DNA from: Cytophaga hutchinsonii ATCC 33406
GTDB lineage: Bacteria; Bacteroidota; Bacteroidia; Cytophagales; Cytophagaceae
NCBI RefSeq assembly: GCF_000014145.1
Contig: NC_008255.1
Span: 2,496,001 to 2,560,000, forward strand
DNA: 64,000 nucleotides
Direction: 5' to 3'
How positions within the stretch are numbered: position 1 is the stretch's first letter; the number at the start of each line of letters is the position of its first letter. Below the pieces are notes generated by a model that saw only the letters and a list, made by a program, of their open reading frames with translations, was not told where the DNA came from and did no database searches. The position numbers were made by a program, and so were the translations under genes. This document shows, piece after piece, positions 18,066-30,690 of this stretch.

Positions 18066-21000
18066 CTACACGTTTACATATCCTTTGTTCTGCTTCTCAC
18101 GGATCATTTTTTCTTTTTCCTTTTCGGCAAGTTCTGCCGATGCAAATGTTTTCACCTGTGTCTGTCCTTTTGTTCCTGCACGTCCAAAACAAATAACCAG
18201 TTTATTGGAAGTATGTTCAAAAGCTACTTTCCAGAATTTGTGGCTGGTTTCATCTTTGTAAATCAATTCTGTAAATAGTAAATCACCATATACAGACGGG
18301 AGTTCAGCTTTTTTAACCGGCTCCTCTGACTGAACGCTGGCAGGTACAGCAGCATCCTTTGGTTTTTCGGCAGTTTGTACAGCATCGGGTTCAATCTCTG
18401 TAACGGTTGGTACAGGTACTTCTTTAATACGTTTGATTAGTTGCTGCAGCACTCTATCGGGATGCTGAAACCAGTCTTTAGCAAACAGTGTAATGGTTCT
18501 CCAGCCGAAACTCTGCAGAACAGCCGGACGTTGAAAATACTGCTCCATCAGGTTTTCATTGCTGTAATGCAGATCATCATCAAGCAAAATACCTAACGTA
18601 TATTCAGTGTCTTCTTTTTTTGCTTTTACAGCAAGTGAACATTTAAAGCTGGATTGGCCTACATACGCGGCTACTTCGTAGCCTTCTTTTTCAAGGGCCT
18701 GCTTTATTTGTTCAAGTACACTATTTTTCCCCGGTGCAAAAGTCTTCTGTTTATTATCCCGTACAAGCCCATCCAGTATGGTTCTTGCCGTTGCAGTATT
18801 TCCTTCGCTGATGAGCTCTGCATAATGCAGGAATTTCTTAAAGTAATTGGCACCGGCATTGTATTCGTTTTTGATGTTGAAATGTTTGATGCTGCTTACA
18901 ATGGCCATGTGCTTTTTAGCGCGGCTGAAAATTACATTCAACCGCTTCTCTCCTCCTTTTTTATTGATCGGACCAAAGTTCATGATCATTTTCTTTTTAC
19001 GGTCAAATCCGTAACACACACTCATAATGATAATATCTCTTTCATCACCCTGCACATTTTCCAGATTCTTTACAAACAACCCGATAAACTGATCTTCTTC
19101 CGTGCGTGTATACGCTGCTTCTAAACGGCTTTCAAAATTCTTATCGGTTGATGCGAGCCGTGTTAAGGCATCTTCAATGGCATGCTGCTGCTCCTGGCTG
19201 AAAGCAACAATACCAATACTTTCCGGTACATTGCGGTTCAGGATCTCACGTACCATATGAGCAATGTAATCGGCCTCATCCAGATTGGCACGTTTCTCAT
19301 ACAAACCGTCCTGCAGGAAATGGTAACTGATGCTTCGGTCGAAAAGAGCGCTTGCATGCTGTGTACCTTCTTCTGCTTTCTGAACAACGATTGCCTGCTT
19401 TTCCTGATGATGTATTGTCTTATCCGGAATGGTCAGTAAGCCGGCATTATAAAAGGCATGGTTACTGAAACTGATCAGTGTTTCATAGCGGCTTCTGTAG
19501 TGCCATCCCAGCATAACACTATCCAGCTTACGGGCGCCTTGTGCAAGTAAGCTGTCGGCATCGTTGCTAAGCAATTCATCGTTTTCTTCCGCTGTGTATT
19601 CATCCAGATCATCGGGGTCTTCTGCTTTTGCGGTAAAGAAATTAGAAGGAGGCATTTGTTTATCATCACCAACAATAATAATCTGTGGTGCACGGTATAA
19701 CGATGGAATTCCTTCTTCTAAGGTAATCTGACTCGCTTCATCAAAAATAATCGCATCGAAGCAGGCAACCTGCAACGGTAAGCTATCGCTCACACTTAAC
19801 GGGCTCATCAGCCACACCGGTTTTAAATCCCTCAATACCTCTCCGCTTTCTTTTTCTGAAAGTTCCCGGATACTTTTATAGCGCATGCTTTTGGCAAACT
19901 CATTCTCCAGAATTTTTCTTCCTTCACTGTACTGTTTCTTAAATGTTTTCTGTTCACTGGTAAGCTGACTCAACGCCATATTGCTTAAATCCAGGTGATC
20001 CAGAAAATTCTTCCGGATTGAAGCGCGGATCAAATCTGCATTCTGCTTCAACAATTGTTTATATAAAACCTGAATAGCATGAACGGCTTTTTCTACTGCC
20101 GCATAATCTGTTACAGCAAATGTTTTATTTTCCAGAGAAATATGGTTGAAGGTTTTATTGGCCATGCTGGCCTGTGCTTCCCTGGGCGTTACCGGCAATG
20201 TTTTAAGCATGCGCTTGACCTGCGGATCAATTGCTGTAAATGCCTTCAAAGATGGTAACAATTCCGAAAGGACTTCTGTATTTATCTGTATGCTTTCCAG
20301 TTCATCCTGTAATTTACCAATGGTTGTATGCGCATAACTGCTCAACGCTTGCTGCAAAACAGGTTCAAGTTGTGAAAATACTCCAGCCAGTTTAGACAGA
20401 TCTTTCACCAGCGCAGTTGAATTGGCTGCATGTAATAAATATTGAATCTCGGCAGTGTCTTTCTTCGTCCGGATCAGTTCAATAAACGCATACATCGTTT
20501 GCAAATCCGTTAGATGGTATTGCTGTTCGATCTCTTTTGCAATATCCGAAACGGCTTCTACAGCACTGTATTCTGCCAGTAATTGCTCCAGCACATATTT
20601 GTACCGGGGCTTAACCTGATGCTTTGAAAAATCATAGCTGTTATCAACCTGAGCTTTTAACGCTTTCCATGCACCACTAAAGAAACGGAAGAAAGACGAT
20701 TCTTTTGCAGCAGCTATTTCTATTCCCTGAATAACATCTTCTTTGCTGAATTTCGTTTTCCAGAAGAGTGTATGGTTACGCGCCGCTTCCTGCTTCTCAA
20801 TACGTTTTTTATACCCCGTTACCTTGCGCTCAAATGCAATTGTATCGGGATGACTCACATCCAGCAGATAAAAATTACCATATTCATTCAGTGGCTGCAG
20901 CTTTACAGAAGCCTCAGCCATGATCTTCATTACATGAAAGCTTGTGTACCGTTCCTCAATATTGTGCTGTTGAATACCGGCAGCCAGCAGTTTCAGATAC

Positions 21001-23537
21001 TCCTGTGCTTCTGTAAGCAGCCGGTCAAGCAGGCTGTAGGGCTGATCAGAAACAAATACAGCTTCATTTATTTTGCTGAAAGGATGTTCCTGAAAAACTG
21101 CTTCTGCGCCCGACTCTTCCAAAGCCTCTCCCAACTCAGTAACAATTGTTCCGAAAGCATCCCAGTATTTATAATGCGGAATAAGTTCTTCATCTTTTGA
21201 AGGAAAAGAACGCAAAAAATCTTTCAGGTCTATCAGCTGATGGATTAACTGTCTGATTTCATTTCCAGCAAGTTCATGTGTATCCAGATGGGCCTGATGA
21301 AATTTTTCGATCATTCCGAGCTGTGCAAGCATAGTATCCAGCAGCTGCGTGCGTTTTGCAGCAATAGCTGCAAGATCCATTTTATTTTTTACAAAGTCTT
21401 CGTACGTCGCTTTCAAATTCTGAATAAACTCCCGCTTATCACTCTGGCTATCGTGAATGTAACAGCAGAGTTCATCCAGCCCCTGTTGTTTTAAGCGGTA
21501 ATATACCACATCCAGCGCGGCACGTTTCTCACAAACAAAAAGTACCTTTTTACCTTGTGCTACAAAATCAGCAATAAGGTTGGTGATCGTCTGACTTTTT
21601 CCGGTACCAGGAGGTCCCTGTATGATATAGCTTTCACCGGTACGGCTCTGCAGAATTGCTTTTGTCTGTGTAGGATCGGCTGTGATGACATGGTTCCAGT
21701 CTGAAAGATTTTTCAGATTAAATGTATGTGCAGACTGTTTCCTGGGTTCCGAACTGAATAATTCTTCAAACACGTTATGATTGATGCCGGATTCAATTAC
21801 TTCATTGTAATCCCGCACAAGGCTCATTTTTTTATAATTAAAATTACCGAGTACAATATTACACACATCAAAGTCCCAGCTGTATGGATTGTTTTCACTT
21901 TCCACCATTTCAAAAAGTTCTCTCTTTTTAGTGCCGGTTAATTGATTTGATGCGAGGTTAATATCATCATTGATCAGAAACTCCAGAAACGTGCTGCGTG
22001 GCTCTATGCGCTGCCTGAAGATCTCCAGACCAAGCGGCTTGTAACTTTCTGTCTGATAGCTATACGATAAATTTTTATACGTATCAAACGTACCGGTACC
22101 ACGGCGCAGGCGTTTTTTATAATTGTTTATGGTTTGCCTTGCAACGCTTTGTATCAGTTTTATGCGTGGTTTATCAATGTAGTTTAATGAAATCCCCTGG
22201 TTAGCACCTTCGATCTGTTCTTTTAATAAGGCATAAAACTGTTCGGGGCTCATTTCATCCAGATCAATAAAATCAGGCAATTTAATGCCATACAGATCAC
22301 GCAAATGATTTGCAAGTACAGGATTTACTTCTGCTTCGTTTGCCAGTACATTCAATACATAGTGATCTTCTTTTAATTTTTTATTCTTCTTTAATTCAAC
22401 CGGAATGAGCAGCAACGGACTTTGTATGCGTTCACCTGTGTCTTCTTTCAGATTGTGCCAGTTTAAAAATGCAATCACGAGTTTCAGCTGACTGAAACCA
22501 TACTCCTGCACATCACGCTGAGACTCTACCCGGATCTTATCCAGTACTGAAGGCAGATACGGATGATCTTCAAACCGCAGGTATTTATTCAGCACAATTT
22601 CATTCATGCCTTTTATTTTACCTGAAATCTCTTTGTTCCAGGTAAACAGCAGTTCAGGGCGAATGCTCTGATAATGCAATACAACAGGCACACTGCTGGC
22701 TGTCATATTTACAAAACGCATGTTCGGTTTATAATACAGCAAACGGTTCCGGCGGCTGGTATCAAAAAGCCTGTTGCGCAGTTTATTCAGAATGAACTGA
22801 CTTTTGCCCTTTAATTCTTTATGCATCCAGCCGGCAACGGTTGAAAGATCTGTTTGTTTTTCCGGATCGTAATCACGGTAATTGATCAGGCGGTGAATAA
22901 CATCATACAGATCCGGTGTACGCTTGCGTCTGTCCAGTTCGGTCATCTCTGTGATCAAAGCTGAAATAGTAGGATGCAGACGTCCGTTGTATTGTACCGG
23001 GTTTGTTCTGTATTGTGCAAAAAGTTTTACATCTTCCTCATCATACAGATCCAGTGCAAGAGAAATACTTCCCAGGATAAGTCCCAGGCAGAATACATCC
23101 GTTTGCGCATCGTGATGGCCCAACAGCTGTTCAAAACATTTGTATCCTTTTATGTAAGCAGGATTTAACAGCGGCTCCTGTATATTGAGGTGAACGTTTA
23201 AATTATTAAGTGTCAGACGTCCGCTATCAACATCTGTATCCATTTTTACTTTACCAACAATATCAAAGAACGTACTTTTTGTTTCCACCAGTTCAGATAC
23301 GCGGCTCAATTGAAAAAACGGTTCATGCGCCAGCTTCTCATCTATATCCAGACAATGATCGGTAATAAAAAGCGCCTCTTCTTTTTCAAAAGGGGCCACC
23401 AGATCCATTTCGTGAAATGATACTACTTCTTTAAACAAGGGCAATACAAAACTAATGATATCGTCCGTTGCGTAACGTTCCATTTCTGATCCGGATTCTA
23501 AAAAATCTTTAAATAACTGAATGTTCTTTTCCATCAA
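18066..23537 (-). CDS. DUF4011 SF1 helicase with kinase-like, nuclease-like and WGR domains
   Basis: A 1823-residue multidomain protein. Residues ~100-220 look like the C-lobe of a protein kinase: GRLTLNNLNV (DFG region, degenerate), AQTDVFCLGLILG (subdomain IX) and MTELDRRKRTPDLYDVIHRL (subdomain XI). DUF4011 follows at about 245 (LNKLRNRLFDTSRRNRLLYY). The SF1 helicase has Walker A IQGPPGTGKSQT (~640), Walker B AIIFDEASQ (~1264), GDDKQMPPS, and C-terminal motifs GWHYRSRYE, VQGDERDIIIMS and NVIFSRAKKHM. About 1600-1700 resembles the Vsr/MTES_1575 endonuclease fold (LGILLDDDLHY, RPAVLQSFGWRTITLFAKDW). The last 75 residues are a WGR domain. It follows an M48-type peptidase gene by 20 bp. A role in defence or nucleic-acid stress is inferred. 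Confidence 0.88.
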   Translation of the reverse strand: MMEKNIQLFKDFLESGSEMERYATDDIISFVLPLFKEVVSFHEMDLVAPFEKEEALFITDHCLDIDEKLAHEPFFQLSRVSELVETKSTFFDIVGKVKMDTDVDSGRLTLNNLNVHLNIQEPLLNPAYIKGYKCFEQLLGHHDAQTDVFCLGLILGSISLALDLYDEEDVKLFAQYRTNPVQYNGRLHPTISALITEMTELDRRKRTPDLYDVIHRLINYRDYDPEKQTDLSTVAGWMHKELKGKSQFILNKLRNRLFDTSRRNRLLYYKPNMRFVNMTASSVPVVLHYQSIRPELLFTWNKEISGKIKGMNEIVLNKYLRFEDHPYLPSVLDKIRVESQRDVQEYGFSQLKLVIAFLNWHNLKEDTGERIQSPLLLIPVELKKNKKLKEDHYVLNVLANEAEVNPVLANHLRDLYGIKLPDFIDLDEMSPEQFYALLKEQIEGANQGISLNYIDKPRIKLIQSVARQTINNYKKRLRRGTGTFDTYKNLSYSYQTESYKPLGLEIFRQRIEPRSTFLEFLINDDINLASNQLTGTKKRELFEMVESENNPYSWDFDVCNIVLGNFNYKKMSLVRDYNEVIESGINHNVFEELFSSEPRKQSAHTFNLKNLSDWNHVITADPTQTKAILQSRTGESYIIQGPPGTGKSQTITNLIADFVAQGKKVLFVCEKRAALDVVYYRLKQQGLDELCCYIHDSQSDKREFIQNLKATYEDFVKNKMDLAAIAAKRTQLLDTMLAQLGMIEKFHQAHLDTHELAGNEIRQLIHQLIDLKDFLRSFPSKDEELIPHYKYWDAFGTIVTELGEALEESGAEAVFQEHPFSKINEAVFVSDQPYSLLDRLLTEAQEYLKLLAAGIQQHNIEERYTSFHVMKIMAEASVKLQPLNEYGNFYLLDVSHPDTIAFERKVTGYKKRIEKQEAARNHTLFWKTKFSKEDVIQGIEIAAAKESSFFRFFSGAWKALKAQVDNSYDFSKHQVKPRYKYVLEQLLAEYSAVEAVSDIAKEIEQQYHLTDLQTMYAFIELIRTKKDTAEIQYLLHAANSTALVKDLSKLAGVFSQLEPVLQQALSSYAHTTIGKLQDELESIQINTEVLSELLPSLKAFTAIDPQVKRMLKTLPVTPREAQASMANKTFNHISLENKTFAVTDYAAVEKAVHAIQVLYKQLLKQNADLIRASIRKNFLDHLDLSNMALSQLTSEQKTFKKQYSEGRKILENEFAKSMRYKSIRELSEKESGEVLRDLKPVWLMSPLSVSDSLPLQVACFDAIIFDEASQITLEEGIPSLYRAPQIIIVGDDKQMPPSNFFTAKAEDPDDLDEYTAEENDELLSNDADSLLAQGARKLDSVMLGWHYRSRYETLISFSNHAFYNAGLLTIPDKTIHHQEKQAIVVQKAEEGTQHASALFDRSISYHFLQDGLYEKRANLDEADYIAHMVREILNRNVPESIGIVAFSQEQQHAIEDALTRLASTDKNFESRLEAAYTRTEEDQFIGLFVKNLENVQGDERDIIIMSVCYGFDRKKKMIMNFGPINKKGGEKRLNVIFSRAKKHMAIVSSIKHFNIKNEYNAGANYFKKFLHYAELISEGNTATARTILDGLVRDNKQKTFAPGKNSVLEQIKQALEKEGYEVAAYVGQSSFKCSLAVKAKKEDTEYTLGILLDDDLHYSNENLMEQYFQRPAVLQSFGWRTITLFAKDWFQHPDRVLQQLIKRIKEVPVPTVTEIEPDAVQTAEKPKDAAVPASVQSEEPVKKAELPSVYGDLLFTELIYKDETSHKFWKVAFEHTSNKLVICFGRAGTKGQTQVKTFASAELAEKEKEKMIREKQNKGYVNV

Positions 23538-23557
23538 TCTATATCAATTCGTTCTGC

Positions 23558-24769
23558 TTATCCTTCGTAAATCTGTTCGCCATCACCTTCTTTCACATTA
23601 TAAAAGGCAGATAATGTTTTTTGTTTATGCTGCTGAAGTTTTTTATCACTCAGGTTTAATTCCTTCTTAACAACGGCATCAAATGTTTCCTTTATATCTA
23701 TATCTTCTGCAAACTGGAAGGCCCAGCCAAAAGGTATTTCTTCCAGCGTACTGTCAAGCAATGCAAAATCAAGCAGCACATACGAAAAATAATTCTTTAC
23801 ACTTTCGTGTGCTTTTTCCATACGGGTAATAAATGTTTCCTCCAGAATTATTTTGTCATCCCAGGAAAAATCTACAAAATACTGTTTTGCCTGGCTTACA
23901 ACCAGTGTACTTCTAAACCAATTGGGCTTAAGGTACAACTGCAGAAACTGACGTGTACATGCTGCCAGTTCTTTTTGCTTAAAAATGTCGAGCGCATCAA
24001 TATCCGTTACACCTTCGATCATACGAATGATCTCCTCTTCTGCTGCTTCTTTTTTTTCATGCCATAAGTGAATAGCCCTGGCACGTATAAAATTTTCAGG
24101 ATGTGAAATGCTTGCGGCTTTTAGCTGCTGATCGGCAGAAAAAATTTCTTCCGCCTGTTTGATGTAACTCTCTGCATTTACCTGTTTCAGGCCTGTTGCT
24201 GTTTTAACCAAAGAGGTAATTACCGGTCCGGTACTTCCCTGCACTTCATACGCACCACGATCACAAAAAATTTCCGTATATAATCTGAAAAGCCGTGCCG
24301 TTTCCATGTACGAAGATTCACTATCGTAATTATTTGAAATTGCTGTAATAATACGCGCAGCTACTTCCGGATCTCCTCCCTGCATGGTATACAGTTTGAT
24401 GTGACTCAGTTCATGTGCAATCACCGTTAGCAATTCATCATCATCCAGCAGCTGAATAATTTGTCCGCTGAAAACTATGTGTGCTTCATTATTCACAAAA
24501 CCTACGCTCGCATTCAGTTCATCCGAATACTGCGCCTGATATACATACACATTGATATCAAGTCCCAGGACCTGTTTCGACTTAGCTACCTTTTCATAGA
24601 TGGAAGTATCTTTCTCCGGATCGAACTTGTATGTATTTTTTAACAGCTCCGTTTTATATTGATTAAGCTGTTCATCTTTGTTTTGACTGGCTGTAAAAAA
24701 ATCCCAGGTTTTTGTCTGATGCTTAAAATGATCAAGCACTTTTTGATGATAGGAAAGCAATGTAAGCAT
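23558..24769 (-). CDS. M48-type zinc metallopeptidase (soluble)
   Basis: A 403-residue protein with an M48-like core at ~60-200: VYQAQYSDELNASVGFVNNEAHIVFSGQIIQLLDDDELLTVIAHELSHIK, where HELSH (about 119-123) gives the two zinc His and the catalytic Glu. The likely third ligand is the Glu in TEIFCDRGAYEV, matching the ExxxD helix of the family. There is no TM helix or signal peptide, unlike HtpX or Ste24, so it should act in the cytoplasm. The C-terminal ~190 residues are helical with no known motif. It lies 20 bp upstream of the DUF4011 helicase, so the two form one transcription unit; the peptidase may process its partner or a target. Confidence 0.85.
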   Translation of the reverse strand: MLTLLSYHQKVLDHFKHQTKTWDFFTASQNKDEQLNQYKTELLKNTYKFDPEKDTSIYEKVAKSKQVLGLDINVYVYQAQYSDELNASVGFVNNEAHIVFSGQIIQLLDDDELLTVIAHELSHIKLYTMQGGDPEVAARIITAISNNYDSESSYMETARLFRLYTEIFCDRGAYEVQGSTGPVITSLVKTATGLKQVNAESYIKQAEEIFSADQQLKAASISHPENFIRARAIHLWHEKKEAAEEEIIRMIEGVTDIDALDIFKQKELAACTRQFLQLYLKPNWFRSTLVVSQAKQYFVDFSWDDKIILEETFITRMEKAHESVKNYFSYVLLDFALLDSTLEEIPFGWAFQFAEDIDIKETFDAVVKKELNLSDKKLQQHKQKTLSAFYNVKEGDGEQIYEG

Positions 24770-27452: not shown

Positions 27453-28864
27453 CATTAAATAAAATTAACATATGTAATTGAAAATTGAATTCAAAATACT
27501 CCGGTTTTGAGATAACTATTCTCTACATTAGAGAAGAGTTAGTATAAAAAATTACAAGCTGTTATGATAAATGAAATTGTTTTTTACCCGCTGCATCAAC
27601 TAAGTGCATTGATCAAAAACAAAACTATTTCTTCTAAAGAATTGATAACGATTTTTCACGATCATATTTCTACGTATGAAAAAAAAAATCAACTGCATTA
27701 CAGACCTGAAATCTGTAGAAGAATTATTGGCTGAAGCAGACGTACTGGATAATAAAATAAATGAAGGTATTTACCTTGGCCCCTTGCATGGCATACCTAT
27801 GACTATTAAAGATACATTTGATGTGAAAGGAATGAAGAGCTGCAACGGAGATCCTCTTTTGCGGAATAATATTGCTGAAAAAGACGCGTATTTAATTTCA
27901 CAACTTAAAGATGCGGGTGCCATAATAATTGGAAAAACGAATTTGCCCTTATTAGCGATTGATTGGATAAGCGATAACTTTTGGTTTGGAAGAACAAACA
28001 ACCCATATGATCTCACACGTGTACCCCGGCGGAAGCTCAGGCGGCTCTGCAGCTGCTTTAGCTGCAGGGTTTACACCACTGGAACTAGGTAGTGATGCAG
28101 GAGGTTCCGTGCGCGTACTTGCCCATTTTTGCGGCGTTTGCGGCTTACGGCCAACCGATGGATTATTTTCAAACGACGGACAATTTAAATTCCCGGGAAA
28201 AGCGAAAGGTCTGCGTTATATAACTGTTCCCGGACCAATGGCCAGAAATATAACCGATCTTAAAATTCTTTTTGATGTTTTCTATGCGAACAGGTTATCC
28301 AAAAATCATGCTCCGTTAAATATTGAAAAATTTCCTTACGATAAAAACAGACCCTTGAAAATTGCCTATTCAAATACCATCCATAATGTTGAGGTAGATT
28401 CAGCATATAAACAGGTATTTACTGCATTCATAGAAAAATTAAAACAGGATGGGCACACGGTTACAGAAGAACAGCCTGACTTTAATTACAAGGAAAGCTA
28501 CCTGAACTGGGCAACGATTATGGGTTTTGATTTTGGTATCAACATGCCGGGAATTCCATTGGAAAAGTATGTAATGTGGTTATTTATGTTTTTCAAATAT
28601 CGCGATTACGACTGGGCTACAGGTATGAAAAGAGGTATTGGCGGGAACATCAAGTCGTATGCAAATGCATTGGAATTCAGAGACGAATTAAGTAACATCT
28701 TTGAAAACTTTCTAACAAAATACGACATCTGGTTAACACCTGTTTCGTCTGATTGTGCCTTCCATCATCAGCGCACCGGCAAACCCTTCCTCATGAATCG
28801 TCCTGAAATAGGTTGACAGATTTTAATACTAATCCCAGTTATCAAAAGTAACTGGGATTTTTGT

Positions 28865-29619
28865 TTAATGCACCATTTCTGGCGTTTTCATTTTTAATGA
28901 TAAATGAGGTCTTACGTTATTATATAATTGTATTGCTTGCTCAGTAAGCTCTTTTGCTACTTGTCTGGTTATTATTTTTTGACCTAATCCAAATTCTTCT
29001 TTGAGCGTTCTATTCATCCTTTCAGCTAACGCATTTTCATAAGGGTCAGATTGTTCGGTCATACTTATGCTTACTCCATTGCTATTTGACAATGCTACAT
29101 ATTCTTTACTGCAATACTGAAGCCCTCTGTCAGAATGATGAATCAATTTTGAATCAGGATACTTTCTATTTTTCAATCCCATTTCAAACGCTTTTATCAT
29201 GGATTCTGTATCCATAGAGTCTGCTATAGAGTAGCCCATTATTTTCTGCTGTAGGCATCAGTGACCATATTTAAATAGCAGTTTCCTTCATCTGTTTTTA
29301 TGTATGTGATGTCACTAACCCATACCTGCTCAGGTCTATGTATGATGAGCCCTTTCACTATATTGGGATATTTCCTGAGCCAATGCTTAGACATCGTTGT
29401 TTGAATATATCTGCGCCTGGGCTTAATAAGCATATCATAAAACCTTAATATTGAGAAGAGTTTATCCCGGCCAACTTTGAGTTCTGCCTGATCAATAAAC
29501 GGCTTTATAATATGGTAAGTCTTTTTTCCTCCTAATCTAGGAAGCTGCTTTCTTTGTGTATCTACCAGTTGTTTGATAGCCTTTCTTCTGTCAATGAGTA
29601 TCAACTCCTGCTTGAGCAT
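28865..29619 (-). pseudogene. IS3-family transposase OrfB (frameshifted)
   Basis: The integrase-like DDE protein of the IS. The first part has LGGKKTYHIIKPFI, then EQVWVSDITYIKTDEG (first Asp) and MVTDAYSRK. The frame then stops at TAA (29239-29241), and the rest (MGYSIADSMD, LIHHSDRGLQYCS with the second Asp, ENALAERMNRTLKEEF with the Glu) is in another frame. Adding one A to the AAAA before TAATG would restore SRKIMGYSIAD. Like other IS3 OrfB products it is normally made by a -1 frameshift from OrfA; the OrfB frame can be followed upstream into the end of OrfA (about 29690). This copy should make no full transposase. Confidence 0.88.
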
Positions 29620-29666
29620 TTTGTATAAATACTGACGACTATAACCTAACGTTGAAGCTATACCTT

Positions 29667-30068
29667 TTACTGTGATAAATCTTCTTTGTTCCCCTTCTCT
29701 TTGAAAGCGGCTTCTGAGAGGGGCAAATACTTTTTTCTGATTTCTGTATCAAACAGCTCATCTGCTATGTCAATAGCGGCATTGAGAATTTCTTTCTCGG
29801 CTTCCAGGCGTTTTAGTTTACGCTCCAGTTCTTTGATTTGCTTATTGGGGGCCTTCTTTTTCATCTGGTCAGATTCTTTCCAATCCAATCTACCATGTTT
29901 TCGTAACCAAGTCAATACGGTACTTCTTCCCTGGATACCATATTTCAATTGTGCCTGCTTGTAGGTTAAGTCCCCTTTTTCTACTTCATCTACTAATTGT
30001 AGTTTAAAGGCTAAACTGTAATCTTTTTGAGTCCGCTTTACATAAACTCTTTTTCCTGTCTTTTCCAT
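29667..30068 (-). CDS. IS3-family transposase OrfA
   Basis: A 133-residue DNA-binding protein. The N-terminal HTH (YSLAFKLQLVDEVEKGDLTYKQAQLKYGIQGRSTVLTWLRKHG) recognises the terminal repeats, and a leucine-zipper-like coiled coil (NKQIKELERKLKRLEAEKEILNAAID) follows, both standard for IS3 OrfA. The frame is intact. It begins 41 bp inside the right end of the element, and its end overlaps the OrfB frame, the usual set-up for programmed frameshifting. Confidence 0.9.
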   Translation of the reverse strand: MEKTGKRVYVKRTQKDYSLAFKLQLVDEVEKGDLTYKQAQLKYGIQGRSTVLTWLRKHGRLDWKESDQMKKKAPNKQIKELERKLKRLEAEKEILNAAIDIADELFDTEIRKKYLPLSEAAFKEKGNKEDLSQ

Positions 30069-30602: not shown

Positions 30603-30603
30603 G

Positions 30604-30690
30604 TAGAGAGGAAGAGATTCGAACTCTCGGTACAGTCACCCGCACACACGCTTTCCAAGCGTGCTCCTTAAGCCACTCGGACACCTCTCT
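30604..30690 (-). tRNA. tRNA-Ser (GGA)
   Basis: The minus strand folds as a class II tRNA. The acceptor AGAGAGG pairs with CCTCTCT; the D arm includes GAGTGGCTTAAGGAG; the anticodon stem CACGC/GCGTG encloses the loop TTGGAAA (anticodon GGA, for UCC/UCU). A long variable arm follows, then the T arm with GTTCGAATC. The 87 bases include the discriminator A; no CCA is encoded, as is common in Bacteroidota. Confidence 0.95.

What the first reader, a model, noticed from the sequence alone, without database searches (positions are those of the whole stretch)
18066..24769. M48-type peptidase plus kinase-like/DUF4011/SF1/nuclease/WGR helicase: candidate defence unit
A cytoplasmic HELSH metallopeptidase is 20 bp upstream of a 1823-residue protein joining a DUF4011-type SF1 helicase, a Vsr/MTES_1575-like nuclease region and a C-terminal WGR domain. 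Large helicase-nuclease fusions next to a protease are a recurring design of anti-phage or genome-stress systems. WGR is known mainly from PARPs as a nucleic-acid-binding domain. I do not recall this exact combination as a named system; that is my recollection, not a search.
Basis: partly seen in the sequence, partly recalled or inferred. Interest (0 to 1): 0.75.

Follow-up and report, generated by a model that had tools for sequence, protein, structure and literature searches.

The report
Protease paired with giant helicase
Two neighbouring genes, a cell-interior metal-dependent protease and a giant helicase whose attached kinase and nuclease parts look dead, travel together across three bacterial phyla and probably form an uncharacterised helicase-controlled protease used against genome damage or viruses.

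Summary
An M48-type peptidase (23558-24769, minus) lies 20 bp upstream of an 1822/1823-residue DUF4011/SF1/MTES_1575/WGR protein (18066-23537). The pair is real: 31 of 31 peptidase relatives have this helicase downstream, one gene away in 1 of them. Of 30 genomes with the helicase, 25 have the peptidase upstream, 4 lack it, 1 is cut by a contig end. The kinase-like part is a kinase C-lobe without N-lobe or catalytic Asp; the nuclease has lost canonical acidic residues. The SF1 motor and the peptidase keep every key residue checked, so the live enzymes are a motor and a protease.

It is not ProA/PDC-S37, Hhe or Mokosh: cut-offs or defining features were not met. Defence is not shown: defence-model matches among neighbours are no commoner than at control sites, no phage or plasmid copy was found, selection is strongly purifying. 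The pair is sporadic and probably moved horizontally. My reading: a helicase-gated protease for defence or genome stress; anti-phage or repair is open. New variant of a known kind.

The parts
23558..24769 (-). M48-like metallopeptidase, 403 aa, no predicted membrane segment; zinc site H119-E-x-x-H123 with E166 and D170, plus C-terminal all-helical region
   Evidence: Pfam M48 39.9 bits; H119, E120, H123, E166, D170, H223, R229 invariant in 29 of 29; AF2 pLDDT 89.9; VIA Z 9.5-10.0 to 3c37, BlaR1, ZMPSTE24, BepA, Ste24
24401..24415 (-). HELSH zinc-binding motif (residues 119-123)
   Evidence: sequence; H, E, H invariant in 29 of 29
18066..23537 (-). giant multidomain SF1 helicase (start TTG 23537 or ATG 23534)
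22869..23534 (-). N-terminal protein-kinase C-lobe without N-lobe, degenerate catalytic loop (inferred pseudokinase)
   Evidence: VIA Z 14.7, rmsd 3.1, 158 aligned, PknB residues 93-278; all 50 Foldseek rows listed are kinases, best E 8.6e-5; catalytic-loop Asp position is F or L in 26 of 26 and in 11 further rows; column assigned by eye
22302..22772 (-). DUF4011 region
   Evidence: Pfam PF13195 53.6 bits, residues 256-412
18891..21677 (-). SF1 (Upf1/DNA2-like, recalled) helicase core with a long insertion between the two halves
   Evidence: AAA_11 and AAA_12; K646, S647, D1265, E1266, D1290, R1347, D1497, R1499, R1538 invariant in 26 of 26 (numbering from ATG 23534)
18426..18713 (-). MTES_1575/Vsr-like nuclease fold, probably inactive (LDLAV...GIECDG of a true ProA reads CSLAV...GILLDD here)
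   Evidence: Pfam 54.9 bits; residue comparison
18075..18257 (-). WGR domain
   Evidence: Pfam 52.7 bits, residues 1761-1821; absent in 3 of 26 helicases (L070, L077, L078) and in 4 of 11 further ones

Best explanation
A two-gene module in which a nucleic-acid-binding SF1 motor controls a dedicated cytoplasmic metalloprotease. Shown here: the genes are linked across phyla, diverge in step, and the motor and protease keep their key residues, while the kinase lobe and nuclease fold are degenerate. Inferred: WGR, DUF4011 and the dead nuclease fold grip unusual DNA or RNA (ends, gaps, blocked or foreign nucleic acid). The kinase C-lobe serves as a docking or regulatory platform. ATP-driven movement on the target activates the bound protease or feeds proteins to it. 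The protease then cuts proteins on that nucleic acid, or cell or phage proteins, as a defence or genome-stress response. The logic resembles Hachiman (sensor helicase plus effector) but with a protease as effector. I put anti-phage or anti-mobile-element defence at about 0.4 and nucleoprotein or crosslink repair at about 0.3; the rest is other functions.
For: Peptidase-anchored: 31 of 31 relatives have the helicase downstream on the same strand; 28 of 29 named loci within 150 bp, median 32, with 4-bp overlaps in 4 of 4 planctomycete loci. Helicase-anchored: 25 of 29 decidable genomes have the peptidase. Pairwise distances of the two proteins correlate at r = 0.92 within Bacteroidota, 0 of 2000 permutations as high (expected of any two genes inherited together). 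Peptidase site invariant in 29 of 29, SF1 residues in 26 of 26; kinase and nuclease residues lost. Sporadic: strong matches in 3 of 395 genomes of the window's phylum, 16 of 244 in the family of G451, 7 of 294 in the phylum of G453, 4 of 240 in the phylum of G456. In the helicase tree the window groups with Cesiribacter inside a mostly Chitinophagaceae group, which fits horizontal transfer. Hachiman precedent: summary and passages of PMC12278908.
Against: Four helicase genomes have no peptidase beside it; in three of them (G561, G683, G471) none was found anywhere in the genome, nor in G858, where the contig ends at the helicase. The nuclease is degenerate in those three too. So the helicase can be kept without this protease, which argues against the protease being the only effector. 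No physical contact, protease activity or substrate is shown. Neighbours show no excess of defence-model matches over control sites; the peptidase was not found on phages, plasmids or viral contigs. Omega of about 0.03 for the helicase is the lowest of the genes compared at that locus in 3 of 3 species pairs (dS often high), unlike a fast-evolving arms-race gene.
Confidence: 0.42

Rival explanations
1. DNA-protein crosslink or blocked-nucleoprotein repair: the motor unfolds or pushes proteins stuck on DNA and the protease digests them, as SPRTN/Wss1 with helicases do in eukaryotes (recalled). A cellular maintenance role, not immunity.
For: Strong purifying selection on both genes; no excess of defence-model matches among neighbours; one helicase copy in each of 10 genomes; WGR recalled as a DNA-break-binding domain of PARP1; weak Foldseek similarity of the peptidase to the 6mdw/6mdx 'protease dependent DPC repair' entries (E 1.3 and 2.6, not significant); sub-threshold SprT-like Pfam score 22.9 against 25.6.
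Against: Very sporadic distribution for a maintenance function (strong matches in 3 of 395 genomes); zinc ligands are M48-type with a Glu, and the best structural matches are M48/M56 proteases.
Confidence: 0.27
2. Helicase-centred defence or stress enzyme with the peptidase only as a processing or regulatory factor that cleaves and so switches the helicase on or off.
For: Asymmetry: no close peptidase relative was found without the helicase (31 of 31), but 4 of 29 decidable helicase genomes lack the peptidase beside it; the long conserved pairing fits a dedicated substrate.
Against: With kinase and nuclease parts degenerate, the helicase alone has no obvious effector; the three peptidase-free Chitinophagaceae helicases show no restored nuclease residues.
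Confidence: 0.18
3. A diverged single-gene ProA/PDC-S37- or Hhe-type nuclease-helicase defence protein, with a bystander peptidase.
For: PADLOC PDC-S37 703.5 bits and NCBIfam ProA 661.7 bits, best stretches within residues 542-1740.
Against: Curated cut-offs 1500 and 2000 not met; a true member scores 1588.9 and 2057.5; another helicase scores 417-512 bits to PDC-S37 in 30 of 39 relatives; catalytic nuclease residues lost; no DUF3320, WGR instead; the peptidase is conserved, not a bystander.
Confidence: 0.08

Closest known systems
ProA (NCBIfam NF058533) / PADLOC PDC-S37
   Same: DUF4011, SF1 core and MTES_1575 nuclease fold in the same order; best stretch within residues 542-1740
   Different: Score below the cut-off; nuclease degenerate; kinase C-lobe at the front and WGR at the end instead of DUF3320; peptidase partner
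Hhe (NCBIfam NF042953)
   Same: Giant DUF4011-SF1 helicase
   Different: 473 bits against a cut-off of 2000; no Hhe member was examined for its architecture
Mokosh (MkoA/MkoB; definition recalled, one MkoA-like locus examined)
   Same: Kinase fold in front of an SF1 helicase, two genes
   Different: The MkoA-like protein examined (L151) has a recognisable kinase (Pfam 57.3 bits, HGD...N...DFG) and is followed by a 451-aa protein with a PLD-like stretch (recognised by eye, not scanned); the window protein has a C-lobe only and an M48 partner upstream
Hachiman (HamAB)
   Same: Sensor helicase paired with a separate effector (PMC12278908, summary and passages)
   Different: HamA is a nuclease; here the partner is a metalloprotease; functional analogy only
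M48 peptidase in the EPEC RRDM defence island (PMC12255303, passages only)
   Same: Predicted M48-family metallopeptidase in a tested anti-phage island
   Different: Partnered with type I R-M and DarTG; no such helicase in the passages; role of that M48 not established in the passages read
BepA, ZMPSTE24, Ste24, BlaR1, HtpX (M48/M56)
   Same: Peptidase fold (HtpX Z 7.5, the others 9.5-10)
   Different: The known ones listed are periplasmic or membrane proteins (recalled); this one has no predicted membrane segment

Membership tests
M48 peptidase family | HExxH plus downstream Glu zinc ligand, Pfam PF01435 above its cut-off | tested here: met
   39.9 bits against 20.3; H119, E120, H123, E166 in 29 of 29
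SprT/Spartan-type protease | Pfam SprT-like above its cut-off | tested here: not met
   22.9 bits against 25.6
ProA (NF058533) | Whole-protein score of at least 1500 bits | tested here: not met
   661.7; positive control L158 scores 1588.9
PADLOC PDC-S37 | Full-length match to the PDC-S37 model (no curated cut-off shown) | tested here: not met
   703.5 bits, best stretch on model positions 205-1368 of 1550, against 2057.5 over 5-1545 for L158; other helicases of 30 of 39 relatives score 417-512
Hhe (NF042953) | Whole-protein score of at least 2000 bits | tested here: not met
   473 bits
Mokosh type I (definition recalled) | Complete Ser/Thr kinase domain fused to the helicase | tested here: not met
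   C-lobe only, catalytic Asp position F or L in 26 of 26; L151 as positive comparison
Mokosh type I (definition recalled) | PLD-type partner next to the helicase | tested here: not met
   In the window the neighbours are the M48 peptidase and, on the other side, a mechanosensitive-channel gene
Active MTES_1575/Vsr-like nuclease | Conserved acidic residues of the (I/L)DLAV...IECDG motif | tested here: not met
   First Asp is S/T/A in 23 of 23 Bacteroidota rows and D in 3 of 3 others; the Glu is absent in all 26. Of 11 further rows none of 8 Bacteroidota and 2 of 3 planctomycete-sample rows keep the Asp. Canonical form seen in L158. Activity itself not tested
Anti-phage defence system | Frequent location among known defence genes | tested here: not met
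   PADLOC at 1e-10: 6 families with 10 family-protein matches among 137 neighbours, 11 families with 11 matches among 135 control proteins. One UvrD-like neighbour, taken to be the one matching many GajB models, was left out. Small sample; one locus may hold mad2/mad3 relatives
Anti-phage defence system | Reduces phage infection | not testable with these tools
   needs plating assays

The most novel reading that the evidence does not exclude
A previously undescribed immune or genome-surveillance system whose effector is an intracellular M48 metalloprotease switched on by a DNA/RNA-sensing helicase that has turned its kinase and nuclease domains into recognition parts.
Probability: 0.3. Interest if true: 0.8.

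Novelty: new variant of a known kind. Interest (0 to 1): 0.52.

Why it matters
Giant DUF4011/SF1 helicases with an MTES_1575 domain are read as nuclease-helicases. This branch appears to have lost nuclease and kinase chemistry yet keeps a dedicated protease partner across three phyla, which suggests a different output, proteolysis, for the same sensing machine. It is small, two genes, and present in named strains such as Pedobacter, Niastella and Cesiribacter, so it can be tested directly. It also warns that defence annotation by the PDC-S37 model without a cut-off can over-call ordinary helicases.

Tried and rejected
Rejected: (1) PADLOC/PDC-S37 hit as proof of defence: the same model rings in 34 of 39 relatives. 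(2) Active nuclease-helicase: residues lost. (3) Bystander peptidase: refuted. (4) Horizontal transfer by an empty site: the flanking mechanosensitive-channel gene was traced to G006 and G008, but no other flanking gene kept its place beside it there, so no empty site could be read. (5) Mobile carriage: no plasmid, phage or viral-contig match, peptidase query only.

Papers: PDC-S37 gave 0 papers; DUF4011 gave 3, and with 'anti-phage' 1; ProA, WGR/pseudokinase, M48/defence-island, Hhe/PADLOC, Mokosh and crosslink terms gave nothing on this pair in the listings; one search gave 0. Only free-licence PMC papers were searched, so the absence is weak. Papers seen as passages only: PMC10250203, PMC12255303, PMC12839542, PMC12278908.

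Limits: profile-profile comparison of the N-terminal domain with the MkoA kinase was weak (probability 8), so the kinase assignment rests on the predicted structure. The model of residues 1-620 is poor overall (mean pLDDT 69.6), good mainly for about residues 20-80 and 120-220; the fold of DUF4011 was not named. Foldseek gave no peptidase match under 1e-3. The genome searches score only some first-look candidates (4 per genome, 6), so absences are not certain. Besides the strong matches, one search has 16 weak genomes (E 1e-5 to 1e-3) and one search has 5, not counted as relatives. Gene starts are first start codons, so the gaps are approximate.

Rows dropped: alignment A1 (29 rows) omits L053, L032, L033; A2 (26 rows) omits L053, L069 (ORF split in two), L075 (two pieces), L076 (contig end), L032, L033. 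One search used 138 of the 150 neighbours listed: the 8 from L057 and 3 from L064 (same sites as L056 and L060) and one large L066 protein were left out; six loci (L052-L055, L058, L063) had been skipped before as same-site copies. One search leaves out L050:7451-9853 besides. The control took 16 stretches from 16 genomes and 137 of 227 ORFs at random; two large ones were dropped to stay under the length limit, so 135 were scanned. In one search multi-copy neighbours and genes under 100 aligned codons were skipped; omega of L056-L057 could not be computed. Ascertainment: of the 30 helicase genomes, 14 had already been met through a peptidase search (the window's own included); of the other 16, 11 have the peptidase, 4 lack it, 1 is undecidable.
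Full report
The observation. Pfam places DUF4011, AAA_11, AAA_12, MTES_1575 and WGR in the large protein and M48 in the small one, all above curated cut-offs. The window lies in a single-contig genome of 4,433,218 bp; I recall that size as Cytophaga hutchinsonii ATCC 33406 (Bacteroidota), no call names it.

The pairing. A scan of genome contigs with the peptidase gave 29 loci in named Bacteroidota, Planctomycetota and Verrucomicrobia records, and two more strong ones came from a 395-genome sample of the window's phylum (16 further genomes there have only weak matches, E 1e-5 to 1e-3). All 31 have the helicase downstream on the same strand. In 28 of the 29 named loci the gap is at most 150 bp, median 32 bp, and all four planctomycete loci overlap by 4 bp; in L067 another ORF lies between, carrying a secretion-sorting tail. 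In the reverse direction a profile of the helicase's N-terminal 250 residues was used. In the same 395-genome sample it finds the same three genomes strongly, plus five weakly, and all three have the peptidase. In 244 genomes of the family of G451 it finds 16: 13 with the peptidase (L097 is the L067 contig), 3 without, and those 3 have no peptidase anywhere. In 294 genomes of the phylum of G453 it finds 7 strongly (79 more weakly, discussed below), 6 with the peptidase and 1, G858, at a contig end; no peptidase was found elsewhere in G858. In 240 genomes of the phylum of G456 it finds 4, 3 with and 1 without within the 19 kb read. Total: 25 with, 4 without, 1 undecidable of 30. Sixteen of these genomes were not met through the peptidase first: 11 with, 4 without, 1 undecidable.

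Context. Among the 30 loci clustered (29 plus the window) only the two genes are shared by all; the next widest neighbour families occur in 8 of 30, six of them Niastella/Longitalea. PADLOC at E 1e-10 gives 6 families with 10 family-protein matches among 137 neighbours (DEDDh exonuclease 3, two PDC-S48 models 2 each, dGTPase 1, mad3 1, mad2 1). One UvrD-like neighbour, taken to be the one that matches many GajB models, was left out. Among 135 control proteins, from arbitrary places in 16 genomes that carry the helicase, 11 families have 11 matches. So no excess of defence models is seen, in a small sample. The 25 most frequent of 137 Pfam families among the neighbours are mainly regulators, transporters and enzymes, with 3 phage integrases. 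The absence from plasmid, phage and viral collections was tested with the peptidase only.

What each part can do. The peptidase model (pLDDT 89.9) matches M48/M56 proteases: 3c37 Z 10.0, BlaR1 10.0, ZMPSTE24 9.9, BepA 9.8; Foldseek alone gave no match under 1e-3. Its zinc-site residues are invariant in 29 of 29. The helicase's first 220 residues match the PknB kinase from residue 93 onwards (Z 14.7, rmsd 3.1, 158 aligned), so the ATP-binding N-lobe is missing, and the catalytic-loop Asp is F or L in 26 of 26 and in 11 further rows. Pfam does not see this domain in the window protein. The 79 weak matches in the planctomycete sample mostly fall on positions of about 100-240 of the profile and are probably kinases (inference, not scanned). 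The SF1 residues checked are invariant in 26 of 26. The nuclease fold reads CSLAV...GILLDD in the window, against LDLAV...GIECDG in a true ProA (L158). The first acid is lost in 23 of 23 Bacteroidota rows and kept in 3 of 3 others; the Glu is absent in all 26. In 11 further rows it is lost in 8 of 8 Bacteroidota and kept in 2 of 3 from the planctomycete sample. WGR is missing in 3 of 26 and in 4 of the 11. Live parts are therefore, on sequence, the motor and the protease.

Evolution. Protein distances of the two genes correlate (r = 0.92 within Bacteroidota, 0 of 2000 permutations as high; r = 0.97 overall), as expected of genes inherited together. In the helicase tree the window sequence groups with Cesiribacter (99/97) inside a mostly Chitinophagaceae group; several forks are open and the peptidase tree does not resolve this. 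Omega is 0.03-0.07 for the peptidase and about 0.03 for the helicase in the four Niastella/Longitalea pairs where it was computed, the helicase being the lowest of the genes compared at that locus in 3 of 3 pairs; dS is high, so values are rough. This argues for a stable function.

Known families. NCBIfam ProA 661.7 against 1500, Hhe 473 against 2000. PADLOC PDC-S37 gives 703.5, but 417-512 for another helicase in 30 of 39 relatives and 2057.5 for a real member. A Mokosh-like locus (L151) has a recognisable kinase and is followed by a protein with a PLD-like stretch. So the pair is a separate branch of the DUF4011/SF1 helicases, not a member of these named systems. No paper on it turned up in the searches made. 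A predicted M48 peptidase occurs in a tested anti-phage island of EPEC (PMC12255303, passages), and sensor-helicase/effector logic is reported for Hachiman (PMC12278908, summary and passages).

Mechanism. I favour a helicase-gated protease (0.42): linkage, matched divergence and conserved chemistry are shown; gating, docking on the kinase lobe, substrates and biological role are inferred. The strongest counter-evidence is the four helicases without a neighbouring peptidase and the lack of any sign of defence context. Repair of proteins stuck on DNA (0.27) and a helicase regulated by the peptidase (0.18) remain open.

Noticed in passing
L156:1470-5432 (G000:C1, about 333.0-336.9 kb): A 1,320-aa DUF4011/SF1 helicase without nuclease or WGR scores about 500 bits to PADLOC PDC-S37 and NCBIfam ProA; similar-scoring helicases are in 30 of 39 relatives, so PDC-S37 calls made without a cut-off may be false.
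   Followed up: partly
L158:1966-6882 (G047): A genuine ProA/PDC-S37 protein (1588.9 bits, above the cut-off) with canonical nuclease motif and DUF3320.
   Followed up: partly
L151:1492-6188 (G064): A Mokosh-like locus: kinase-helicase followed by a 451-aa protein with a PLD-like stretch (by eye).
   Followed up: partly
window 27676-28816: An amidase gene appears split over two overlapping ORFs in different frames (by eye).
   Followed up: no
window 28865-30068: Adjacent ORFs resembling an IS3-type transposase (by eye) near a tRNA-Ser at 30603-30690.
   Followed up: no
L069:11201-16603 (Niabella aurantiaca): The helicase is split into ORFs of 549 and 1234 aa just before the motor domain; real split or sequencing error unknown.
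   Followed up: no
L067:4954-6741: A 596-aa ORF with a Por secretion-sorting tail lies between peptidase and helicase.
   Followed up: partly
L135 and L136: Two peptidase-free helicases have similar-looking ABC transporter genes (589 and 591 aa) close upstream.
   Followed up: no
neighbours of the pair in alignment A7 (locus not identified): Single neighbours match the mad2 and mad3 models of the MADS defence system; whether they sit in one locus was not looked up.
   Followed up: no
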